The notes under the pieces are model-generated. The model did no database searches. It saw only the letters and a program-made list of their open reading frames with translations, and was not told where the DNA came from. 64,000 nucleotides of DNA from a virus. The stretch lies in IMG/VR virus record IMGVR_UViG_3300029309_000008, positions 1 to 64,000 of that record, one strand, 5' to 3'. The first letter of the stretch is position 1, and each line of letters begins with the position of its first letter. The translations under genes were made by a program, and so were the position numbers. Positions 1 through 56,500 of this stretch are shown here, in pieces.

Positions 1-61
1 TATTTTCAAAATTCTCATTTCTTTATCACGCTTTTTGCGTAAAAACAAAATCCCCGCCCCC

Positions 62-145: not shown

Positions 146-517
146 CTATTCTTTTAATTGGTCTTCAATGTTCTCAATTACTCCTTCAGAGAATTGTCTC
201 CTTTCTTCCACCTCGATAAGACTCTTTGGAACTTTTCCCACTATGCCTATCATGTTAGCACCCATGTACTTAAGGCTATCTGACGTATCTTCGAATTGCC
301 AACCTATGCAAGTAAGCATGTCCATAAAGGCTTCAAAGATAAGTGGCTTTGGCCCTTCTGAAATGTCATCAACGTCAAAGAGGAATAGCATCTTTTGGGG
401 AGTCAATAATAGCATCTCAAAAGGAATGAAATGCGCTTCTAAATGATTGCAAGAATGTTCTATTGCTTTTGGGAATCGTCTGCTAATTTCTAATAAAGTT
501 TTTTGTCTGTTTGTCAT
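146..517 (-). CDS. Hypothetical protein, 123 aa
   Basis: I do not recognise this family. The product is a mixed alpha/beta protein of 123 residues without a signal peptide, membrane segment or metal motif. The middle is hydrophobic (residues about 34-50, with FLFDVDD), and the C-terminus is acidic and helical (VEERRQFSEGVIENIEDQLKE region). The gene is the last of the leftward genes here. It is preceded by a leader (522-540) that is also found ahead of the genes at 570, 983 and 1303, and it is followed by a terminator hairpin. It is probably an early accessory gene of the phage. Confidence 0.7.
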   Translation of the reverse strand: MTNRQKTLLEISRRFPKAIEHSCNHLEAHFIPFEMLLLTPQKMLFLFDVDDISEGPKPLIFEAFMDMLTCIGWQFEDTSDSLKYMGANMIGIVGKVPKSLIEVEERRQFSEGVIENIEDQLKE

Positions 518-543
518 AATAAAAAATAAAAGGGTTTAAACAT

Positions 544-561
544 GCCCTCCTTTCGGAGGGC
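544..561 (-). terminator. GNRA hairpin after the 570-725 gene
   Basis: On the minus strand GCCCTCC-GAAA-GGAGGGC forms seven perfect pairs closed by a GAAA tetraloop, eight bases past the stop of the 570-725 gene. No U tract follows, so it may stabilise or punctuate the mRNA rather than end transcription. Similar hairpins lie at 957-974 and 1276-1293. Confidence 0.6.
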
Positions 562-569
562 TTTACTAC

Positions 570-725
570 TTACCAACCAAGTTTATCTTCTTTTAGTTGG
601 TCAATTTGGAGGTTAATTTCCACCTCGTTTTCATCGACCTCTGCCCAATCAAAGGACTTGAGTTCGTCCTGCTCCTGCTTCACTTGTTTAGGAGTTGGAT
701 TGTAATTGATGTTATCGTCTGCCAT
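570..725 (-). CDS. Small acidic hypothetical protein, 51 aa
   Basis: This gene was read directly from the sequence. The ATG at 725 follows an A/T-rich leader (aaaaattaaagggttaaa on the plus strand, 730-746) that matches the leaders of its neighbours, and the TAA is at 570-572. The product is acidic and helical, rich in D, E, K and Q, with an N-terminal MADDNINYNPTPKQVKQEQD stretch and no cysteines or membrane segment. Two promoter candidates lie upstream (780-811 and 874-905), and a GAAA hairpin lies downstream. The function is unknown. The self-contained promoter-leader-gene-hairpin layout supports a real, expressed gene. Confidence 0.65.
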   Translation of the reverse strand: MADDNINYNPTPKQVKQEQDELKSFDWAEVDENEVEINLQIDQLKEDKLGW

Positions 726-764
726 CGTTAAAAATTAAAGGGTTAAAAAATATGACTGCTTTCG

Positions 765-779
765 TAGTCGTTGACTACT
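765..779 (-). promoter_or_regulatory. Leader hairpin ahead of the 570-725 gene
   Basis: GTAGTC-AAC-GACTAC on the minus strand lies between the predicted start of transcription and the gene, with a T run shortly after it (about 745-751). It could protect the 5' end or act as an attenuator; the sequence does not decide between these. Confidence 0.35.
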
Positions 780-811
780 CAAAGATAAAACGAATAATTA
801 AACTATCCAAA
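780..811 (-). promoter_or_regulatory. Bacteroidota-type promoter, leftward
   Basis: The minus strand reads TTTG, exactly 20 bases, TATCTTTG. This is a full match to the Bacteroidota vegetative promoter (TTTG at -33, TAnnTTTG at -7). The -33 box is part of AATTTGGATA, which recurs at 6500-6511 and 897-906. It points to the 570-725 gene. Confidence 0.6.
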
Positions 812-873
812 TTAAATTGTGTTAAAATTCGTTAACAAAATTATCAGCCTATCCTATATAAGGAACGCACACG

Positions 874-905
874 CACGTATACAAAAAAAATTCAACATAT
901 CCAAA
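874..905 (-). promoter_or_regulatory. Second leftward promoter candidate
   Basis: On the minus strand AATTTGGATATG contains TTTG followed after exactly 20 bases by TATACGTG. The -33 half matches the site at 780-811; the -7 half matches only at TA and the last two bases. It is probably a tandem upstream promoter of the same unit. The rest of the gap 726-982 shows nothing else. Confidence 0.35.
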
Positions 906-956
906 TTTTTTATGTCATTTTTTTTTCTTTACCTCTGATTGATTCTTTATCACGAT

Positions 957-974
957 ACCCACCTTTCGGTGGGC
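957..974 (-). terminator. GNRA hairpin after the 983-1246 gene
   Basis: The minus strand reads GCCCACC-GAAA-GGTGGGT, a strong stem with a GAAA tetraloop eight bases past the stop of the 983-1246 gene. It has no U tract. It belongs to the same family as the hairpins at 544-561 and 1276-1293. Confidence 0.6.
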
Positions 975-982
975 ACGTGAAC

Positions 983-1246
983 CTAATCCCATGTGTAGGT
1001 CTTGTCAGTTGGGGCTTCGCCTCCTTTTAGCCAAGACCTAACGTCAGCATAGTAAGGTCTCTGACGATGTTCTCCGATATGCGAACAAAAAGCATCATTC
1101 ACAATCGAAACATCTTCTCCATCAGCAACGTGTGCCATTTGAAAATGAGTGGAATCTATCTTCTTAAGATAGTAACGATACGGAAGGGTAGGTCTACCTT
1201 CCAAGATGTAAATGCCAGTGACATTTGGGTTTAAAGCATTTTCCAT
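983..1246 (-). CDS. Hypothetical protein, 87 aa
   Basis: The product is a soluble 87-residue protein with a probable beta-rich N-terminal half (TGIYILEGRPTLPYRYYLKK, then an amphipathic strand FQMAHVAD) and a C-terminus rich in aromatic residues and histidine. There is no signal peptide or known motif. The start at 1246 follows the shared leader (aaaaaaggtttaaaggtg, plus strand 1250-1266), and a GAAA hairpin follows the gene. It is one of a group of small leftward genes that look like host-takeover or accessory genes, but no function can be assigned. Confidence 0.65.
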   Translation of the reverse strand: MENALNPNVTGIYILEGRPTLPYRYYLKKIDSTHFQMAHVADGEDVSIVNDAFCSHIGEHRQRPYYADVRSWLKGGEAPTDKTYTWD

Positions 1247-1266
1247 TTGAAAAAAGGTTTAAAGGT

Positions 1267-1293
1267 GAAAAAAATGCCCTCCCTTCGGAGGGC
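1267..1293 (-). terminator. Intrinsic terminator after the 1303-1503 gene
   Basis: On the minus strand a GCCCTC/GAGGGC stem (1276-1293) with a CGAA-type loop is followed by ATTTTTTTC. This is the best intrinsic terminator of the left-end hairpin family because it has a seven-base U tract. Confidence 0.75.
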
Positions 1294-1302
1294 TTGGGTT
1301 AA

Positions 1303-1503
1303 TTACTTTTTGTAGTGTTGACAGACAAAGAATAGCGAAGTTGCTATGGCTTGATAAATGAGCGCACCGATTGGATGTATTGGTGACACTAAGTCTGCAG
1401 TGGTAAACAATTCACATACAAATATTGCAGTGAAAGTAAAGGCTAATATCTGTGCTGATACGCCAAATGAAAATGCTAATTGATACTTTAGTTTGTTCAT
1501 CAT
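1303..1503 (-). CDS. Small membrane protein, 66 aa
   Basis: The 66-residue product is hydrophobic, with two predicted membrane segments: about residues 8-30 (LAFSFGVSAQILAFTFTAIF) and 43-60 (HPIGALIYQAIATSLFFV). It ends in a basic tail (HYKK). Two methionines open the gene and either may be the start. The shared leader (plus strand 1504-1522) lies directly upstream, and an intrinsic terminator lies downstream. Two-helix phage proteins of this size include holins, superinfection-exclusion proteins and envelope modifiers; nothing here chooses among them. Confidence 0.6.
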   Translation of the reverse strand: MMNKLKYQLAFSFGVSAQILAFTFTAIFVCELFTTADLVSPIHPIGALIYQAIATSLFFVCQHYKK

Positions 1504-1530
1504 AAAAATTAAAAGGTTAAAGAATAAAGG

Positions 1531-1998
1531 TTAAAGGTTAAAGTGTTCGTATGCTTTGAGAATTAGGTTTCGTAGTTGCTTTTTACTGATGTACCCCTTG
1601 TCAGCGTGTTTGTGACAAGTAGGACAAACCACAGCAATATTAGTCTTAGGGTCATTCGCTACCTTTACCTTAGTAGTCTTAGGCAAAGAAGATAGTGAGT
1701 CAATGTGATGTAATTCTTTACAATCATCATATTCATCATAACCACAAACTACGCAAGGCGTTGAAAGTAGAAAGGCATTGACCTTTCGATTGTGATGTCT
1801 AACGTTAGGAAATGAATACTCAGCCAACGTTCGCTCTGAGGGGTCAACGTATGCTGTAGTAACCTCAGTTTTAAGGTATCCAATGTGAGAGTTAGCACAT
1901 TGTCTTGAACAATACTTAGTGCGCTTATCTTTTACAACGTTGTTACAAGTTGGGTTAAAGCAAGTCTTAGTAGTAGTAGTACACATAATTCGTTTCAT
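1531..1998 (-). CDS. HNH homing-type endonuclease
   Basis: The product is an HNH nuclease of 155 residues. The N-terminus has a zinc-binding treble clef with C13, C18, C30 and C34 (CFNPTCNN, YCSRQC). The catalytic part has C82xxC85, then ELHHID around H97-H98, and closes with NIAVVCPTCHKHADKG (C125xxC128-H129). This is the order expected of a beta-beta-alpha-metal nuclease with a structural zinc. Such genes are usually free-standing homing endonucleases that nick phage DNA and spread themselves. It stands alone between a 66-residue membrane gene and a gene-free stretch. M5 is an alternative start. Confidence 0.85.
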   Translation of the reverse strand: MKRIMCTTTTKTCFNPTCNNVVKDKRTKYCSRQCANSHIGYLKTEVTTAYVDPSERTLAEYSFPNVRHHNRKVNAFLLSTPCVVCGYDEYDDCKELHHIDSLSSLPKTTKVKVANDPKTNIAVVCPTCHKHADKGYISKKQLRNLILKAYEHFNL

Positions 1999-2410
1999 TG
2001 TTATAAATACAAGTTATAACAAAGAATTGAGAATACCAAATATTAGATAAATTAATTTAAGGTATATATTATATATGTATATCATACCTATATATAATAG
2101 ATGACAGCGACATCCAGCGACAGCTTAGAAAGAAAGATACATCACATTAGATACATATCTATCTATACATACCTACCCTTGAACATGTACCAAAAGACAG
2201 ATGATTACCTACTACATACCCACCACCAAAAAAAACAAGCGACAAAAAAACGTTTCTAAAATTTACAGGGGGGTACAACAAAATTTTTACAAAAAAAAAT
2301 TTGTAATATATAATACTTACACCCGCAACCTCTGTGTACTCTTAGAGGGCGGGGGTCAATATATTTAGAATATGGGGTGGGGGCTGAGTTTAAAATTAAA
2401 CGAAGGGGAC
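1999..2410. other. Gene-free, low-complexity stretch
   Basis: No convincing reading frame lies here on either strand. The stretch contains an alternating TA tract (about 2064-2100), pyrimidine/purine-biased tracts with repeated TACATACC-like words (2150-2222), a G6 run at 2270-2275, an A9/T run and a G-rich segment (2347-2385). It sits between a self-standing HNH gene and the end of the long leftward operon. It may hold the HNH gene's promoter, replication or packaging signals, or nothing. Confidence 0.4.
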
Positions 2411-37047: not shown

Positions 37048-40000
37048 TGGCTAAGAGTAACAAAAGAATAGACAGACAGATAGGTGCACCCAAGCAGGGT
37101 ATGAATAAGGATGTGCATCCCGCATCCTTAGACGAAAAAACCTACACACATGCCCTCAATGCAAACTATGAGGGACAGGATGGAGATATTGTTAACCTTC
37201 AAAATGAAGAAAGCAACATACTTTGTTCAAAGTTTAAACCAGGCTTTAAAGTAGTAGGACACCAAATTGACATCACAGGGGAAAGAACATATTTCTTTTT
37301 AGTTGATGATTCTACAACTCCCCCTCGCTCTGAGATAGGATTTATAGAGGACCTGGGTAAGCAAATTAATTTTACTGACACAGTAATTAAATGTGGGTGT
37401 AGTATAGAGGCTGTTCTATCTGATGGTTTAGAAAATCAAGTTCAAAGTGAGACCTGTACTTATACTACCTTAATAGCTGATTACGAATGTCCTAATGGCT
37501 TGACTCCTAATCACTGTCTAAATTTTAACATAAACTATCCAATATCGTCAGTACTAAAAGACGACAAGTTGGGGAAGATACTGTATTTTACAGATGACCT
37601 TAACCCCAGAAGAAGAATAGAACTAGATAACATTTCTCAGTACTACAAAACTCCTGTTGTTTGTGCCGATGATGCGGATGCTTGCATCAATTGTGGGCTA
37701 ATGGATATGCTTCCAGAGACACCACCACTTTGCATCGATGTAGAAGGCACAGTAATAGGTGGGGATGTTGACCATGGGGTGTATGCTTTTTTTGCAGGGT
37801 ATTGTGATGGAGAGGGTAATATGGTTAGAGACTACTCCGCTTCTACAAATACCTTTTCAGTTAAAGACCCTAATAAGGATATTTATACTCAGCCTGAATT
37901 AGATATTCCTACAAACTTCTCTATAAAACTTAATATAAATAATCTAGATACACAATTTGAATTTTACCAAGTAGCTGTAGTGGCTATTAAGGAGGTCAAT
38001 GGTGCAAAGTCTTATTATAGTTTAGGAGTTTTTCCAACATCGAATCAAGAAGTTTTATTCTCTGGATTAGAAACTTTACCACAGGAAAATAGGTTAGGCC
38101 TTTTTGAAATTACCCAAACTGTGCCAGAATACATCAAAGCTAAGTTTGTAACAAACACAAACAACACCCTTTACTTTGGGGACCTGGAGGGCAGGCCAGA
38201 CCCTAACCTTCAGCCAGTTGTAAACTTTATGGGACAGTTTGCCAAGTGGCGAACTTTTATGGCAGAAGAAGACCTTTACAGTACTTCTTATGGTACAGGT
38301 AATTTTAAAGGATATATGCGAGACGAAGTTGTTCCTTTTGGAATTAGGTTCGTAACTAAAAAAGGCTACAAGACTCCAATCTATCCTTTGATAGCAAGAG
38401 TAGCAGATGCAACTAGCGATTTATACTTTGATGATATATCTTCTGGAAGTATACCTTCTCACCAAGCTGACCCAACGGCTTGTATCGCAGCTATAAAAAG
38501 TTCTATCAACTTACCTACAGCAGCTAGCACACGTAAGTGGATAAAAGACGTTTACTCAACATTAAGGTATGGTAATGAAAACTGTAATGATGAAGAGAGA
38601 GTGTACAAGTGGCAGTACTACAACACCGCAGTAGAACAGAGAAGAGATATCGATGATTGTGCAACGGTAAGTTCTACAACAGTTAAAAGAGATATAGAAA
38701 AGGTTTGTTCTCAAGAAGAAAACACTATACTAGGTACTTCTGTAGGTATACCTAATGATAACACCACGGCATTAAGACTTGATTTCACAGAGGACGGAAC
38801 TGTACCTGAGTTTGAAACTCCTCCTTGTGACCCCACGACTGACCCCACTTGCCCGTGTCCAGTAGGTATTGAGGTAGAAGGATTTTTTACAGGGTTTGCT
38901 GATTATGTTCAAAATAATCAATCCGTCTTTGAAGACATTGCAAATGATTCTACTGGTCTATATGGTGCAACTCAAAAACTACTAGCAAGTTACTTTATTT
39001 TAGATAATTATAAAGAAGGAGGCATACATGCACTCGACTGTTGTGATGTAGGGTTTGATAGTAGCGTTTGTGGCACGCCTACTAAAATATCTGAATTCAT
39101 AGAAGTTTTAGGATTAGAGACAAGGGCTCCCTGTGCTAAGATAGTTTATGAAGAGTGCTCATATTATGATAGGCCTCCTGAATCAGATATCTGTTTTAAC
39201 TATGCAATAGACCCTACCAATGGTGATAACAAAAACATAAATATTCAATGTGCTTATGATGTAAAGGGGGACAATACCCAACGTTGCGAGAATGATTGTG
39301 GAGATGGTGCTAAAAATTATTTATTTACTTATGAATTTTTTGTAGGTGTAAGAAAAAAGAAAGATAAATATAATTTAGTATTTGATAGAACAACTCCCGT
39401 TTCTGGAGGAAGCAGTTGTAACAATTCCTCTAGTCTTCCATTAAGCTTTAATGAGTATGATTCTGCATTTACCACACACATTACTCCTGATTTTCCTGAT
39501 ATTGAAATAGTTGAAAATGACGGGACCACTTCAGACGAAGATGCCAGGTACATTAGTAAACATATAAATAGCCAAGAAGCACAAGTCAAACAGTTAATGG
39601 ACAAAGACTTTATAGCTGGTTATGGTTATGGGGAGGTAGACCCTAGACAAAATACTAATCCAGGAAGCAGAAGAAAGAAAAAATTCTGTGCAAAGGCAAA
39701 AAATGACATTTATTTAGGGCTTCCTGAGAATGCAGGGCCATTTGATAATTCAGATAACGTATCAGGACCTGGTATTTTCTTTAATGGGGGGAGTGCAGGT
39801 TTTCCATTAGTAGATGGAGTAGATTATGGCAGAGTTCACAATAATGCTGTATGGTATAAATTAGCTGTGGGTTCGAATAATAAAATTTATTTTGCTGTTT
39901 CTAGACAAAATGATTTTCCCTCTGACAACGATAAGAAAGACTGTTTATGGTATCCTGAAATAGCAAGAGTCAGTTTCTTTGTAAACTGTGATGGAGACAT

Positions 40001-43000
40001 CTTTGAAAATTTCACACTTTGTGCTAATCCTTCTGAAAAGAATTTAAACTCCACGAAAGTAGATTTAGATGGGCCTGATGGAGTTATAGAGCTTGATATA
40101 AAAGCGGCTCTTGACTCTGGTGCGTTTCCAGGGGGTATATCAGAAATTTATGTTGCTGTAGACACACCAGTTGTGAGGGCTGAACAACGTCCAGGACAAG
40201 CCAATTCTTGTTTTTATCCTGGGGGATTGGGAGATAAGGAACATACAGATAAAGCTGGTGGCAGCGGTCAAAATATTTACTATTATAGTTCTGGTACAAA
40301 CTGTTTTGTAGTCAAAGCTTATAACCAAGCCATAGATTATATTGAGGCTTACTTGGCACCCACACAACTAATTTTAGAAAAAACTTGTACTTTCAAAAGT
40401 AGTTGCACACTATCTGTTTACGATACTTTAAAGTGTGACCCTTTCTTTAGAAGTGAAGGTATATTTTCATATTGGGAATCAACTAACATCTACCCCGATA
40501 ATGATTTTCTATATAACAGTAAAAATCAAATAACTAATATCGCTAACTTGGACTTAGGTAGTGCAGATGCAAATAATGAGTTCAATAATATATATGTAAC
40601 GGGTGGAGAATTAAACGACAAGGCTAACTTTGCGTGTAAACCGATTAGACACTTTAAGTTCCCTGATGTAAACATTTCTCCAATGTTTGGGGCTGATACG
40701 TTCTTCAATGCCCAGCCTGTTCCTTTTGTACCATCTAAAATTTATCCAATAGGCTTCCATATTGATAACAATATTATCAATGGATTCTTGGATTTAGCCG
40801 TAGATAATACTTTAATCACTCAAGAGTTTAGGGATTCAATCACTAACTACGAAATATTTAGAGGGGATGTCAGACTAAATAAGTCTATTATTTCTAAAGG
40901 TGTTCTCTACGATATGTACAAACACGTAGACGAGGATACCAACGATACATCTTATTTTAGTAACTTTCCTTACAATGATTTATCAGATAATAAACTACTT
41001 TACAGAAAAGAAAACAGGAAGAAGTTTATAGAGCATCCATTTAAGAATGATTTAAAATCAAACAACAGGTTTACATTCCATTCTCCTAACACATCGTTTG
41101 ACAGAGACTTGTTGCCTTTTGAAATGTATGTTGAAACTGATTTTGTAGGGTATAGTAGAGGTGCATTCGCAAAAGTAGAGGACCATCCGAAGTATACAGT
41201 CCTCGCACCAAGAGCCTACAGAATAGCTAGATTCTTAGCAGCAGCTGAAACAACATTAGACTTTTTAACAAACTTAAGTTCGGCATTAATACAAGTGGGT
41301 CTTGCTGGTAATGTGGGTACAACTACCAACGTTTTACAGCCTGTAGCATGGGTAGCATTTGGTCTATACACAGGACAAGCACTTATAAACTTAGTACCAC
41401 AAGGTAAACAGAATACATCTAAGTGGTTAACTATATTTAGAACTTTAGGAAATGACAGAAACTTCGCCAATTACTACTCTTCAGTAGGATTCTACAATGG
41501 TATGTATATACCCCCTTCACAAGAGGGCGACAAATTAAGAGGGCTAAGAGAAAAGTTATATATTGATAATGGTAGATACCGTGTCGATGAGATAGATGAA
41601 GATAGTAATATTATCATCAACAACTTTAACAGAGAGTCTTCAGTTTATTTAAGTCTTGGTGTAGAAAAGGATTCATCAGGCAACGTTAGACATAATTTTA
41701 ATCTTGATAAGTCACCTGCTATTAGAAACTACGATAATAGTAGATTCATAGCATCGGACAAAGGGTGCTTTAAGGGAGCTGTATCAAGGGAGTATGAAGC
41801 ACCTATCTCTTCCCCTTATGTTTCACTTAAACGATTCTTGCCTGGACAGTATGGAGGTATTAGTAGTGTAAGTTGGTTTGATACCGCATATTGTGGAGAC
41901 CTTACAAAAACTAATTCTTGTGAAGCTGCCTTTGGTGGAGATACGTTTATAAGTAGGATGTACCTCAAAAGAAAGTTTTCGCTTTTCTCTACGCCAGCTT
42001 TGATAGGTAAAAACGGTACAGGAGACAATGTGCCTTATGAGTACTCTATTTATAGAAATGTAGGCTACCCTAGATTCTTCTTAGACTATCTGATGGATGG
42101 AGAAGATGATGTTACAATTTATGGTAACATCCCTAACTTAAGGTCAAATTTTGAATTTGATTGTACAAATAGTAAGGGGTTGTACATGAAGCCCCCATCA
42201 AAGTTCTACTTGTTCTACTATGGTATACCTGGATTTTTGGTAGAGTCTAGAATTAATCTTAACTTCCGTTATGGTAGAAATAATTCTGATAAATTCTTTT
42301 ATCCAGGAACTAGGGATTACTTAGGGTGGACTCAAGAAAACTATGTGTCTGTACGTGAGGGAGAAGAGTTTTCATACAATGAGAACTACAGTAAAAACAA
42401 TGATATCTCTGATGCATTTGTTCTTCCTGATAACTACGACCCAGCCATATGGAATGCACAGTATGATAATTATGATAGAGTAATATTCTCACTACCTGAT
42501 AACAATGAGTCTAACAGAATTGACAACTTTAGATATTTCCTATCTAATAACTACCATGACTTTGGTAATAAGTATGGCAGACTGGTAGACTTGGCTAATA
42601 TAGAGTCAGATAAAGTACTTGTTCGTTTTGAAAATGGAGCATCTATATTTAATTCTTATAATGTTTTACGTGGCCAAAATCAATCCGACCCTAATTATGC
42701 GGTGAATCCTCAAGAAAACAGAACAATACTCAAGAGTAAACCTAGTGAGTTCTTTAGAACAGAGTTAGGCTACGGAGGTACTCAACACAGAGCTTTAGTT
42801 TCTTGTCAGCTGGGGCACTTTTGGACTGATGCTAAAAGAGGGAGAGTATACCAGTTAAGTCCTAACGGAACGTCTTGGGATGAAATATCTAACAAGGGTA
42901 TGAAAAACTGGTTTAGAGAAAACTTGCCTTTCCGTATTAAAACTCAGTTTAAGGATATCCCAGATGATATGCTTGACAATACTATGGATGGGCTAGGAAT

Positions 43001-43928
43001 AGCTATGACATGGGATGACAGGTATATGCGTTTATTCTTAACCAAGTTAGATTCAAAGGTAAAATCAAGCATTACGATTTGGACAGGAGATGATTCTCTA
43101 GCTCCTAATAACAGTATGAGAATCAAAGACTTAGACTTTATCTATAGAAATGATTTAGGAGTTGATTCTGTTGTAAACCCTCAAGACCCTACGTATTTTG
43201 ATTTAGCTTCTTGGACGACAGCTTATAGTCCTGTAATTAAGGGGTGGGTATCTTTTTACTCTTTCACGCCTAACTATTATGTAAGTCATCAGAACTATTT
43301 CTCTTCTGGTCTTAATCCTCTTGTAAGTGGGACAAGAAAAGGTAGTACTGCAGGAATATGGAATCACTTACTTGGTAGTAACCAAACATTCCAAGTATTC
43401 TATGGTTCTAGGCACTCGTGGATTATTGAAACTGTCGCTAAAACTAATTATCAAAGTAAGCTATATGAAGACTTTAGCTATAGGCTAAATGTTAGAAGAT
43501 ATGTGAATGAGTATGATTACCATTACTTCGATGAAAACTTCGATAAGATGGTTCTGTACAATGACAGAGAGTCTTCAGGATTATTAAGACTAGTGACTCA
43601 AGAGCCTAATAGTTTGAAACAACTTATTGATTTCCCTAAGTTCACTTCTACAGGTATTGACATTATAGCCACAAATCAGGATTATACTTGGTCAGTTAAC
43701 TACTTTTTCGATAATTTAAAAGAAAATCATACACAACCTATTTGGACTAATGCTCTAAATAATGTAGATAAGGATTTAAACAATGAAGCATTCAACTACA
43801 ACCCTTCATTCAAAAACCATATTAGAGGTCAATACTTACTAATAAGAATGGAGCAGAGTAAAGAATCAAGACTTAAGTTTATATTTGAACACTTTATATC
43901 AGACTCATTAATGTACGATGCCTACTAA
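37047..43928 (+). CDS. Giant tail-hub ('muzzle'-like) protein
   Basis: The 2293-residue product begins with GAPKQGMNKDVHPASLDEKT and HALNANYEGQDGDIVNLQN (residues 12-50), the N-terminal pattern of the tail-hub or stabilisation proteins of crAss-like and T7-like podophages: a strand that donates to a beta-propeller. The body is beta-rich throughout, with many Cys-containing inserts in the first half (residues 110-750). One hydrophobic stretch occurs near residues 1410-1460 (ALIQVGLAGNVGTTTNVLQP). It probably forms the end of the short tail and its nozzle. It is much longer than known muzzle proteins. The 3' end overlaps the next gene by 11 bases. Confidence 0.65.
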   Translation: MAKSNKRIDRQIGAPKQGMNKDVHPASLDEKTYTHALNANYEGQDGDIVNLQNEESNILCSKFKPGFKVVGHQIDITGERTYFFLVDDSTTPPRSEIGFIEDLGKQINFTDTVIKCGCSIEAVLSDGLENQVQSETCTYTTLIADYECPNGLTPNHCLNFNINYPISSVLKDDKLGKILYFTDDLNPRRRIELDNISQYYKTPVVCADDADACINCGLMDMLPETPPLCIDVEGTVIGGDVDHGVYAFFAGYCDGEGNMVRDYSASTNTFSVKDPNKDIYTQPELDIPTNFSIKLNINNLDTQFEFYQVAVVAIKEVNGAKSYYSLGVFPTSNQEVLFSGLETLPQENRLGLFEITQTVPEYIKAKFVTNTNNTLYFGDLEGRPDPNLQPVVNFMGQFAKWRTFMAEEDLYSTSYGTGNFKGYMRDEVVPFGIRFVTKKGYKTPIYPLIARVADATSDLYFDDISSGSIPSHQADPTACIAAIKSSINLPTAASTRKWIKDVYSTLRYGNENCNDEERVYKWQYYNTAVEQRRDIDDCATVSSTTVKRDIEKVCSQEENTILGTSVGIPNDNTTALRLDFTEDGTVPEFETPPCDPTTDPTCPCPVGIEVEGFFTGFADYVQNNQSVFEDIANDSTGLYGATQKLLASYFILDNYKEGGIHALDCCDVGFDSSVCGTPTKISEFIEVLGLETRAPCAKIVYEECSYYDRPPESDICFNYAIDPTNGDNKNINIQCAYDVKGDNTQRCENDCGDGAKNYLFTYEFFVGVRKKKDKYNLVFDRTTPVSGGSSCNNSSSLPLSFNEYDSAFTTHITPDFPDIEIVENDGTTSDEDARYISKHINSQEAQVKQLMDKDFIAGYGYGEVDPRQNTNPGSRRKKKFCAKAKNDIYLGLPENAGPFDNSDNVSGPGIFFNGGSAGFPLVDGVDYGRVHNNAVWYKLAVGSNNKIYFAVSRQNDFPSDNDKKDCLWYPEIARVSFFVNCDGDIFENFTLCANPSEKNLNSTKVDLDGPDGVIELDIKAALDSGAFPGGISEIYVAVDTPVVRAEQRPGQANSCFYPGGLGDKEHTDKAGGSGQNIYYYSSGTNCFVVKAYNQAIDYIEAYLAPTQLILEKTCTFKSSCTLSVYDTLKCDPFFRSEGIFSYWESTNIYPDNDFLYNSKNQITNIANLDLGSADANNEFNNIYVTGGELNDKANFACKPIRHFKFPDVNISPMFGADTFFNAQPVPFVPSKIYPIGFHIDNNIINGFLDLAVDNTLITQEFRDSITNYEIFRGDVRLNKSIISKGVLYDMYKHVDEDTNDTSYFSNFPYNDLSDNKLLYRKENRKKFIEHPFKNDLKSNNRFTFHSPNTSFDRDLLPFEMYVETDFVGYSRGAFAKVEDHPKYTVLAPRAYRIARFLAAAETTLDFLTNLSSALIQVGLAGNVGTTTNVLQPVAWVAFGLYTGQALINLVPQGKQNTSKWLTIFRTLGNDRNFANYYSSVGFYNGMYIPPSQEGDKLRGLREKLYIDNGRYRVDEIDEDSNIIINNFNRESSVYLSLGVEKDSSGNVRHNFNLDKSPAIRNYDNSRFIASDKGCFKGAVSREYEAPISSPYVSLKRFLPGQYGGISSVSWFDTAYCGDLTKTNSCEAAFGGDTFISRMYLKRKFSLFSTPALIGKNGTGDNVPYEYSIYRNVGYPRFFLDYLMDGEDDVTIYGNIPNLRSNFEFDCTNSKGLYMKPPSKFYLFYYGIPGFLVESRINLNFRYGRNNSDKFFYPGTRDYLGWTQENYVSVREGEEFSYNENYSKNNDISDAFVLPDNYDPAIWNAQYDNYDRVIFSLPDNNESNRIDNFRYFLSNNYHDFGNKYGRLVDLANIESDKVLVRFENGASIFNSYNVLRGQNQSDPNYAVNPQENRTILKSKPSEFFRTELGYGGTQHRALVSCQLGHFWTDAKRGRVYQLSPNGTSWDEISNKGMKNWFRENLPFRIKTQFKDIPDDMLDNTMDGLGIAMTWDDRYMRLFLTKLDSKVKSSITIWTGDDSLAPNNSMRIKDLDFIYRNDLGVDSVVNPQDPTYFDLASWTTAYSPVIKGWVSFYSFTPNYYVSHQNYFSSGLNPLVSGTRKGSTAGIWNHLLGSNQTFQVFYGSRHSWIIETVAKTNYQSKLYEDFSYRLNVRRYVNEYDYHYFDENFDKMVLYNDRESSGLLRLVTQEPNSLKQLIDFPKFTSTGIDIIATNQDYTWSVNYFFDNLKENHTQPIWTNALNNVDKDLNNEAFNYNPSFKNHIRGQYLLIRMEQSKESRLKFIFEHFISDSLMYDAY

Positions 43929-53542: not shown

Positions 53543-56500
53543 ATGTTTAGAAAAAAAGTAATTAGAAACCAAGAGGTACCTGTAGACCCAAATGCATATC
53601 AGTCTACCAACCCTGCCTATCAATATATTCCAGCAGGTATAGATATGATGGCAACAGAAGGGGAGCCTGCTACTGATGTTTTTGGAAATCCTAGGCCTCT
53701 TGTTTTTAAAAGACGAGCCCTTGGTAGTTTTGACTCTCAAGAAGACTTTAATAAGTATCACGCAATAGTGAGGAATCGTCAAAATCAAATGTCTACTTCT
53801 GGAAAAATAATAGATGAAATTCAACAAGCATTGGTGGATGCAGCTTACGTTTTAACTAATCCATTGAGTACGTATAAGGATGCTCATAGCATGGAGGGTT
53901 TGAGAAGAATGAGAGGTGAAATTGAGCAGAACGGAGGATATATTAGAAATCAAAATGCTGTAGGAACTTCACTACCAGGATATGGGGGGTTTGCAGGACC
54001 TGGATTACCTGCAAATATTGATGCTGACTCAGATGGTATACCTGATGCATATGATAGTTTACCAGACTCAACGGGAGGCTCTTTTGTATTTGACACCCCA
54101 ACTACAACTACTGAATCAACTACATCTCCGATGGTACCTTTTGTGCCTGACACAGTCGAAAGTCTTCCAAATATGAGACAGTTTAACCCTTATCAAAATG
54201 TTGGTTTTGGGTTGAGCACTGCCTTAACATCGGATAGTGCGGGTGAAAGAAGAGCTGGTGCTGTTCTTACAGGATTAGCAGGGGCTTCCTCAGCGTTTGA
54301 CCTTGGCAGCAATCTATTGCTTGGTAGAGGGGCCAACAAAGAAATAACAGACATGATGGCCCAAGCAGATAGAACTGCAGGCCTTGATTTTCAAGCACCT
54401 ATTATGGACCAAACAGAAGGAGTAGAGTCTGCGTTATCTAGAACTGGCTTTGCTCAAGATGGTGCAACTATGTACAAAAAAGGTGGTAAGTCTAAAAAGA
54501 AAAATAAACCTAATAACCCTTCATTGTGGTCAAGAGCCATTGCTGCAGCAAAGAAAAAGTTTGATGTTTATCCATCGGCTTATGCCAATGCATGGGCTGT
54601 ACAATGGTACAAAAAGAAAGGAGGCACTTGGAGAAAAGCTCAAGATGGTTTTGTATACGAAGAAGGAGGTCAAATCACTATTGAAGAGCAACTATCAGGT
54701 AGAAACGTGACGGGAATAGCTAGACCTGAATTATCAGGGACAGAGATAAATGCAGAGCTTGAGAAAAACGAATACGTTGAGTACCCAGAAGAGCAAAAAA
54801 TATCTAAAGTTATAGGAAAGTCACACGCCCAAGGTGGAGAAAAAATGAACCTAGAGCCAGGTACAAGAATCCTCTCTGACAATATAAAGGTAGGTGCCGA
54901 GTACAAGAAAGCTTTATCTGATTTATTTGATATGAAAAATATCAAAGCAAATGATACTGTAGCGAAGGTGATGGAAAAGTATCTTCAAAAGTCAGGAATT
55001 ACAGCTATACAAAAAAGACAAGAAGAGGTACTGAAAGGTCTTAAAGAAAATATGTCTGTTAAGGACGAGGCTACTAGAAGAACTAACGAGCAGTTCTATG
55101 CTGATAAAATTATTAAGACTCAAGCTGAATTAAACGAGAAGCAAAAAGAACAAACACTAGTGTTCAATGTATTGTTCCAGATGCAAGAAGCTCGTAAAGC
55201 TAAAAATGAGCAAGGAGACCCCTCTGCAAAAAACATTAGAAAAAGACCACCATTAGAACAGGAATTCGTACCTTACGAAGGCCCACCCCCAGTAGAAGAA
55301 GAAACCGCACAACCAGTTGAAGTGGCTCTGCAAAACGGAGGCACTATAGATATTTTAATGGATGGTACTAAAATATATGCATCTCCAGAAGCAATAGAAA
55401 TTGTACGAAGAGATGCTTTAGAAGGAGGCTATGGCGACTTTATGGAGTACCTATCTGAAAATGTAACGGGTAGATACGCAGATGGTGGAGGTATCCCTGA
55501 GAGATACAAGAAAAAAGGCTTTAGAAAAGTAGGTGTAAAGAAAAGAGCTCCATCTGGTTCAAAACACAAGTGGGAAGTACTTGCACGCAAAAAAGTAGGA
55601 GGTAAGACTCGTTACAAAATTGTTAAAGGAGGCTTTAGAGGGATGAAGGACTTTACCCAACACAAAGACAAAAAACGTCAAAAAAGTTTCTGGGATAGAA
55701 TGGGAGGTAAAAACTCTGCTAAAACAAAAGACCCATTTTCTCCACTTTATTGGCACAAACGCTTTGGTACTTGGGAAGATGGTGGTAAATTAGATGCGAA
55801 GAAAAATTTTAAACCGCATTGGATGTACGACCCTAATAACCCAAATAAGGCTGAGTTTGCAGAAAAGTATGAAGACCACGTAAGACTTGATAAGCTAGGA
55901 TATGTTTACGAGAAGCCTAAAATCGAAGACTTTGAGTACGGTGGTATGAGCAGATACCAAAGTGCGAATCAGGTTGAAATTATTGTCGATGCAGACGGTA
56001 ATAGATATATTCCTCAGTTTAGAGACAGAGAGACAGGACAAGTTGTATATGCTGATGCACAAGGTAATTATGTTGTACCTGGGCAAATGACTACTGAAAA
56101 TTCAACTTTTAATGCAAATGCTCGAGGTATATACCGTGCGGGGCAGTATGGTTATGATGAATTGGATGACGTAGGAAAGTCTAAATTAGACGAATCGTCT
56201 GGAGCTACAGCAGACTATGTGGCTGAACAATACAAAAAAACAGGAAGCGTACAAGGTCTTACTGTAAACGTGTTTGGTGCAAGTTCAAAAACTCCTGTTT
56301 CGCCCAAGAGCCAGATAGAGATATTTGAAAGCTTAGGCTATGAGCAAATTGGTAGTAACAAAAATAGATATAGAGTTCCTGATTTAGCTAATGACCCTAC
56401 AGGTCAAACTTTTATAGAGGTTCTGGTTGGTACTTCTGAAGCAAGTGATGCAGCTAATTATGGTTTACCTAAACTAAGAACTTCAGACCAAATTACTAAA

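What the first reader, a model, noticed from the sequence alone, without database searches (positions are those of the whole stretch)
522..1522. Repeated leader plus GNRA hairpin around small left-end genes
Genes at 146, 570, 983 and 1303 share a leader (plus-strand aaaa(n)ttaaaaggttaaa-like: 522-540, 730-746, 1250-1266, 1504-1522), and the last three are followed by GC hairpins with GAAA-type loops (544-561, 957-974, 1276-1293). This looks like a modular cassette system in which each small gene carries its own start and end signals, ideal for swapping accessory genes.
Basis: seen in the sequence. Interest (0 to 1): 0.6.

Follow-up and report, generated by a model that had tools for sequence, protein, structure and literature searches.

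The report
Shuffled phage genes with terminator–leader joints
In an uncultured tailed phage distantly related to crAss-like phages, several unrelated small genes are joined by the same short connector, a hairpin that closes one gene followed by a host-style ribosome landing strip that opens the next, and related phages carry the same connectors between different genes, so the genes look like interchangeable blocks built from ordinary signals.

Summary
The repeats are real. Four minus-strand genes (146-517, 570-725, 983-1246, 1303-1503) have related leaders (TTTAACCYTTTAATTTTTA, starting about -22 from ATG). The motif recurs in relatives: a profile from the window leaders picks out genes in phages G006 and G001, mostly behind GAAA hairpins and before unrelated proteins. 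Linkers are homologous where the genes are not. One gene is shared at 93% as a block that starts inside its leader and ends just past its own hairpin, with different flanks. So 'cassette' (leader + gene + 3' hairpin) is supported.

'Own start signal' in the transcriptional sense is not: only two host-type promoters (2039-2009, 810-780) serve the cluster, and the 26-29 nt between hairpin and ATG hold none. The leader is best read as a Bacteroidota translation-initiation region: the same 18-mer near an ATG occurs 17 times in 84,980 genomes, at least 13 in Bacteroidota, 15 at real ORF starts. Hairpins are best read as intrinsic, probably partial, terminators. No RNA data exist. Ordinary parts in an informative arrangement, analogous to SAS/ESAS of cluster K mycobacteriophages.

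The parts
146..517 (-). small gene, 123 aa, no family match; weakly related to G001 39094-39480 (21.5%, E 6e-4)
522..540 (-). leader (TTAAACCCTTTTATTTTTT) of gene 146-517
544..561 (-). hairpin GCCCTCC-GAAA-GGAGGGC, 8 nt after stop of 570-725, 26 nt before ATG of 146-517; -16.2 kcal/mol with leader, z -4.3
570..725 (-). small gene, 51 aa, no family match
729..747 (-). leader TTTAACCCTTTAATTTTTA of gene 570-725
780..810 (-). host-type promoter TTG-N20-TATCTTTG for 570-725 and 146-517
   Evidence: consensus from PMC6847099
957..974 (-). hairpin (core CCCACC-GAAA-GGTGGG) after gene 983-1246, followed by GTGATAAAG box (953-945) and a long spacer
983..1246 (-). small gene, 87 aa, 95% identical to G001 42509-42772; no family match
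1250..1266 (-). divergent leader of gene 983-1246
1276..1293 (-). hairpin GCCCTCC-GAAG-GGAGGGC then ATTTTTTT, 9 nt after stop of 1303-1503, 29 nt before ATG of 983-1246
1303..1503 (-). small hydrophobic protein gene, 66 aa, 40% to G001 37986-38318
1503..1521 (-). leader TTTAACCTTTTAATTTTTA of gene 1303-1503 (no hairpin upstream); its last A overlaps the first ATG
1531..1998 (-). HNH endonuclease gene, 155 aa, first gene of the upstream transcription unit
2009..2039 (-). promoter-like TTG-N20-TAACTTGT (flavobacterial SM5 type TAnnTTGY) in front of the HNH gene
   Evidence: PMC9723704
2418..2440 (-). T-tailed terminator after the HNH-type gene 2470-2757, comparison case

Best explanation
An accessory gene cluster built from blocks of leader + small gene + 3' hairpin. 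The hairpin belongs to the upstream gene: an intrinsic-terminator-like stem-loop that ends or thins out the transcript and caps its 3' end. The leader belongs to the downstream gene: a pyrimidine-rich, weakly structured translation-initiation region of Bacteroidota type that replaces a Shine-Dalgarno site. Where blocks abut directly, the hairpin's T-rich tail merges into the next leader, so a gene behind a hairpin is expressed by readthrough from one of two host-type promoters (2039-2009 and 810-780); elsewhere a hairpin is followed by a long spacer with a new promoter. Because linkers are alike while genes are not, they are also where gene blocks have been exchanged, probably by recombination. 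Shown: anatomy, recurrence, linker homology, block boundaries. Inferred: termination and its partial character, translation role, recombination as cause.
For: 13 of 17 intergenic hairpins in three genomes lie 5-30 nt after a stop codon, while the distance from hairpin to next ATG is 26-29 nt in short linkers and roughly 200-800 nt in long ones; T content is higher 3' than 5' of the hairpins (4.6 vs 2.9 of 9, P=0.025). Hairpins occur without an adjoining leader (957-974, 108-129) and leaders without hairpins (1503-1521, G001 42509), so the two parts are separable. Leader start is fixed near -22 in three phages. Leader 18-mer plus ATG in 84,980 genomes: 17 hits, at least 13 Bacteroidota by record title, 15 at ORFs >=47 aa including triosephosphate isomerase- and galactokinase-like starts. 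In viral contigs 47 of 65 hits start ORFs >=40 aa, some with stop-hairpin-leader-ATG in other phages such as L125. Shared block window 1273->944 = G001 42483-42811, 93%, different flanks. Five of six linkers match relatives better than all 200 shuffles. Two promoters only.
Against: Two hairpins (544-561, 957-974) have poor T tracts, so termination there is doubtful. The start region of 983-1246 is predicted less accessible (0.46) than the genome median 0.55, although the other three are 0.58-0.71. The leader lacks the A-rich -12/-13 positions favoured in F. johnsoniae (PMC6847099). Only three genomes cover the cluster well. The leader of 1303-1503 alone does not exceed shuffles in the linker comparison (9 of 200). 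Host phylum is inferred from signals and the TerL relatives, not shown.
Confidence: 0.68

Rival explanations
1. Each hairpin-leader is a promoter for a phage-encoded (virion) RNA polymerase, so every gene truly has its own transcription start, as hairpin promoters work for phage N4 (N4 recalled from general knowledge).
For: Fixed hairpin-to-ATG distance of 26-29 nt in short linkers; crAss-like phages use a virion RNA polymerase for early genes (stated for phi14:2 in PMC8375218); stable GAAA/UUCG loops.
Against: Hairpins track stop codons and occur with no gene close downstream; leaders occur without hairpins; the leader 18-mer precedes Bacteroidota genome genes; two host-type promoters are present; no polymerase-type DxDxD motif among the virion ORFs apart from DxDxDG matches in two proteins that look calcium-binding, and no solved-structure match for the two largest. 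About 19 kb is missing relative to G001, so a polymerase gene could be unseen.
Confidence: 0.08
2. The hairpins are not terminators but mRNA processing or stability elements that give each gene its own decay rate within one long transcript.
For: Poor T tracts at 544-561 and 957-974; very stable stems, some GNRA-capped; no promoter behind short-linker hairpins.
Against: Good T tracts at 1276-1293 and in several relatives' copies; excess of T on the 3' side; the same class of hairpin ends gene blocks before long spacers with new promoters.
Confidence: 0.2
3. The repeats merely reflect recent duplication of linkers and low-complexity AT-rich DNA, with no functional selection.
For: AT-rich sequence; the 13-mer is not over-represented window-wide.
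Against: Fixed spacing, recurrence in relatives before unrelated genes, start association in unrelated genomes.
Confidence: 0.05

Closest known systems
Start-Associated Sequences (SAS) and extended SAS of cluster K mycobacteriophages (PMC3203893)
   Same: A short asymmetric sequence just upstream of start codons of many genes of different families; about half also have an inverted repeat directly upstream; function not settled.
   Different: SAS is GGGATAGGAGCCC and ESAS an imperfect 17-bp inverted repeat with mostly 4-13 bp spacer; here the leader is SD-less and pyrimidine-rich, and the hairpin is tied to the upstream stop codon.
Short conserved boundary sequences of lambdoid phages (Clark 2001, Susskind & Botstein 1978, as cited in PMC3029335)
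   Same: Short similar sequences between exchangeable, non-homologous modules, proposed sites of homologous recombination.
   Different: Here the boundary is itself a terminator-like hairpin plus translation leader, in a phage of another host phylum; recombination was not observed.
Bacteroidota translation-initiation regions and sigma-A promoters (PMC6847099, PMC9723704)
   Same: SD-less AU-rich leader with A at -3 in most copies; promoter TTG-N-TAHHTTTG and the SM5 variant TAnnTTGY.
   Different: The exact TTTAACCYTTTAATTTTTA word is repeated and pyrimidine-rich at -12 to -17 rather than A-rich.
Intrinsic terminators with partial termination (class 3'-PT in PMC9723704)
   Same: GC hairpin with T-rich tail shortly after stop codons, with transcription expected to continue in part.
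   Different: The tail doubles as the next gene's leader; two copies have weak T tracts.

Membership tests
Intrinsic (Rho-independent) terminator | GC-rich stable stem-loop after a stop codon | tested here: met
   -13.1 to -17.6 kcal/mol, z -3.8 to -4.3; 8-17 nt after stop in window
Intrinsic (Rho-independent) terminator | U-rich tract directly 3' of the stem | tested here: inconclusive
   Good at 1276-1293 and 2440-2418, moderate at 108-129, weak at 544-561 and 957-974
Intrinsic (Rho-independent) terminator | Transcripts end there | not testable with these tools
   No RNA data
Bacteroidota translation-initiation region | Start-associated in Bacteroidota genomes, no SD | tested here: met
   15 of 17 genome hits at ORF starts, at least 13 of 17 records titled as Bacteroidota
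Bacteroidota translation-initiation region | Unstructured around the start codon | tested here: inconclusive
   Unpaired fraction 0.58-0.71 for three genes, 0.46 for one; genome median 0.55
SAS/ESAS | GGGATAGGAGCCC-like sequence at starts | tested here: not met
   Leader sequence is different (against PMC3203893)
SAS/ESAS | Associated with genes of different families across related phages | tested here: met
Phage boundary-sequence linkers | Homologous linker between non-homologous genes | tested here: met
   Linkers beat 200/200 shuffles for 5 of 6; flanking proteins unrelated by BLASTP
Phage boundary-sequence linkers | Recombination at the linker | not tested
   Block end points fit it, events not observed
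Autonomous promoter-gene-terminator moron | Own promoter for each gene | tested here: not met
   Two host-type promoters for five genes; none in the short linkers

The most novel reading that the evidence does not exclude
The hairpin-leader joint is a dedicated three-in-one element, a partial terminator, a translation start and a recombination joint, selected so that accessory genes can be inserted or swapped into a working operon without a promoter of their own, each insert stepping expression down along the array.
Probability: 0.25. Interest if true: 0.6.

Novelty: new member of a known kind. Interest (0 to 1): 0.36.

Why it matters
It gives a sequence-level rule for where genes are exchanged in the accessory region of a little-studied lineage distantly related to crAss-like phages, a region likely to hold host-takeover genes, and offers a search handle (hairpin + TTTAACCYTTTAATTTTTA + ATG) for such genes. 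It also adds a Bacteroidota phage example of start-associated sequences, whose role was left open when they were described in mycobacteriophages.

Tried and rejected
Alternative-hairpin attenuator in front of gene 570-725 (GTAGTC-AAC-GACTAC against GACTAC-GAAA-GCAGTC): weak folding energy (z -0.8) and the palindrome overlaps the expected transcription start, so a DNA operator is likelier. Hairpin promoter of a virion RNA polymerase: not supported. Known RNA family: none convincing (one match far below its gathering score). Family matches for the small proteins: none in Pfam, PHROGs or NCBIfam. More relatives through gene 146-517: none; through G006 1010-1303: one other weak hit, not followed. 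Very specific hairpin+leader scan of viral contigs: only G001 and G006. SD pairing of the hairpin arm GAAAGGAGG: seen in one hairpin only, judged coincidental.

Full report
What the window is. The window is the first 64 kb of an 89,756-base linear IMG/VR record. Its TerL matches phi17:2 and phi4:1 of Cellulophaga at 32% and, more weakly, gut crAss-like phages; the record has RecA, PolA, ribonucleotide reductase and very large virion proteins. The closest relative found, G001 (92,261 b), is permuted; its 37-62 kb stretch fills what this record lacks between its two ends.

Observation. The order is stop codon, 8-9 nt, hairpin, leader, ATG. A fourth hairpin follows gene 146-517. The 13-mer is not over-represented in the window as a whole, but the clustering, the fixed position and the recurrence in relatives are far from chance.

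Relatives. G006 has two genes with near-identical modules, for example GCCCCCGAAAGGGGGC ATTTTTAAAACCCTTTAATATTTAAAC ATG; G001 has one with hairpin and leader (38368), and G005 one at a contig end with a UUCG-loop hairpin. The genes behind them are unrelated to the window genes by BLASTP, while the linkers are homologous: 84% over 44 nt, 83% over 54 nt, 80% over 96 nt, and so on, five of six above all 200 dinucleotide shuffles. Conversely, where genes are related their neighbours differ: 983-1246 and G001 42509-42772 (95%) have different upstream genes; 1303-1503 and G001 37986-38318 (40%) are each followed by hairpin and leader but then by different genes; G006 1656-1817 and the G001 gene at 43063-43224 (58%) are followed by a short and a long linker respectively. 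The 93% block between window and G001 begins in the leader and ends at GTGATAAAGA just beyond the hairpin.

Two kinds of linker. Short: stop-hairpin-leader-ATG, about 45 nt. Long: stop-hairpin-GTGATAAAGA-AT-rich spacer-promoter (TTTGGATA-N-TATCTTTG type)-untranslated leader-ATG, some 250 nt or more. Both kinds appear between different genes.

What the leader is. The word TTAACCCTTTAATTTTTA followed within 8 nt by ATG occurs 17 times in a collection with one genome for each of 84,980 species. At least 13 are Bacteroidota by title, and 15 of 17 open a reading frame of 47 aa or more, among them triosephosphate isomerase- and galactokinase-like sequences (recognised by eye from the translations). 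In viral contigs the shorter word opens reading frames of at least 40 aa in 47 of 65 cases, many in phages without other resemblance to this one; that set is redundant, with several near-identical contigs. Since Bacteroidota lack Shine-Dalgarno use and rely on weakly structured start regions with A at -3 (PMC6847099), I read the leader as a translation-initiation region.

What the hairpin is. It tracks stop codons, not starts, and has more T on its 3' side, so an intrinsic terminator is the best reading, with weak T tracts at two sites suggesting leakiness. There is no room for, and no trace of, a host-type promoter between hairpin and ATG; only the promoters at 2039-2009 and 810-780 were found on the coding strand of the first 2.5 kb. 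Genes 983-1246 and 146-517 must therefore be read through, unless an unknown polymerase is used.

Verdict. The parts are ordinary; the arrangement resembles SAS/ESAS (PMC3203893) and phage boundary sequences (PMC3029335) without meeting the sequence definition of the former. The function of the small proteins is unknown, and nothing here shows that the exchange is ongoing.

Noticed in passing
window 945-953 and 21-29 (-); G001 38668, 39761, 41418, 42032, 42802, 43252 (+); G006 902 (-): A GTGATAAAG box follows the hairpins that open long linkers, often inside a small stem (ATCACGG...CCGTGATAAAGAA). Meaning unknown.
   Followed up: partly
G001 about 41498, 42108, 42934, 43330 (-) and the G006 linker after gene 1010-1303: Host-type promoters pointing backwards, towards the GTGATAAAG box and the 3' end of the upstream gene, in five long linkers; they would make short antisense RNAs. 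Not found in the window.
   Followed up: partly
window 764-778 (-) and G001 42195-42209: Palindrome GTAGTC-AAC-GACTAC / GAGGTC-AAC-GACCTC at the expected transcription start, arms changed but symmetry kept; possible repressor operator.
   Followed up: partly
window about 905-870 (-); G001 about 38918 and 43887 (+): TTTGGATA followed by a GTATACGTGCGTGTGC-like element, repeated in long linkers of both phages.
   Followed up: no
G001 37986-38318: Protein whose first 60 residues match window 1303-1503 and whose last 39 match the end of G006 1010-1303, possibly one membrane protein family with a shortened member in the window.
   Followed up: partly
G001 45-51 kb: A second repeated leader, TTAAATAAAAAGAA-ATG, in front of many small genes of the neighbouring cluster.
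   Followed up: no
L125, L128, L130, L165, L177; L119 and similar loci: Other viral contigs with stop, hairpin (for example GGGTGGGG-GAAA-CCCCACCC), TTTAATTTTTATCAC, ATG between genes: the same layout in other phages.
   Followed up: partly
G001 about 55710-55790: Sequence resembling a tRNA gene between small genes; seen by eye, not scanned.
   Followed up: no
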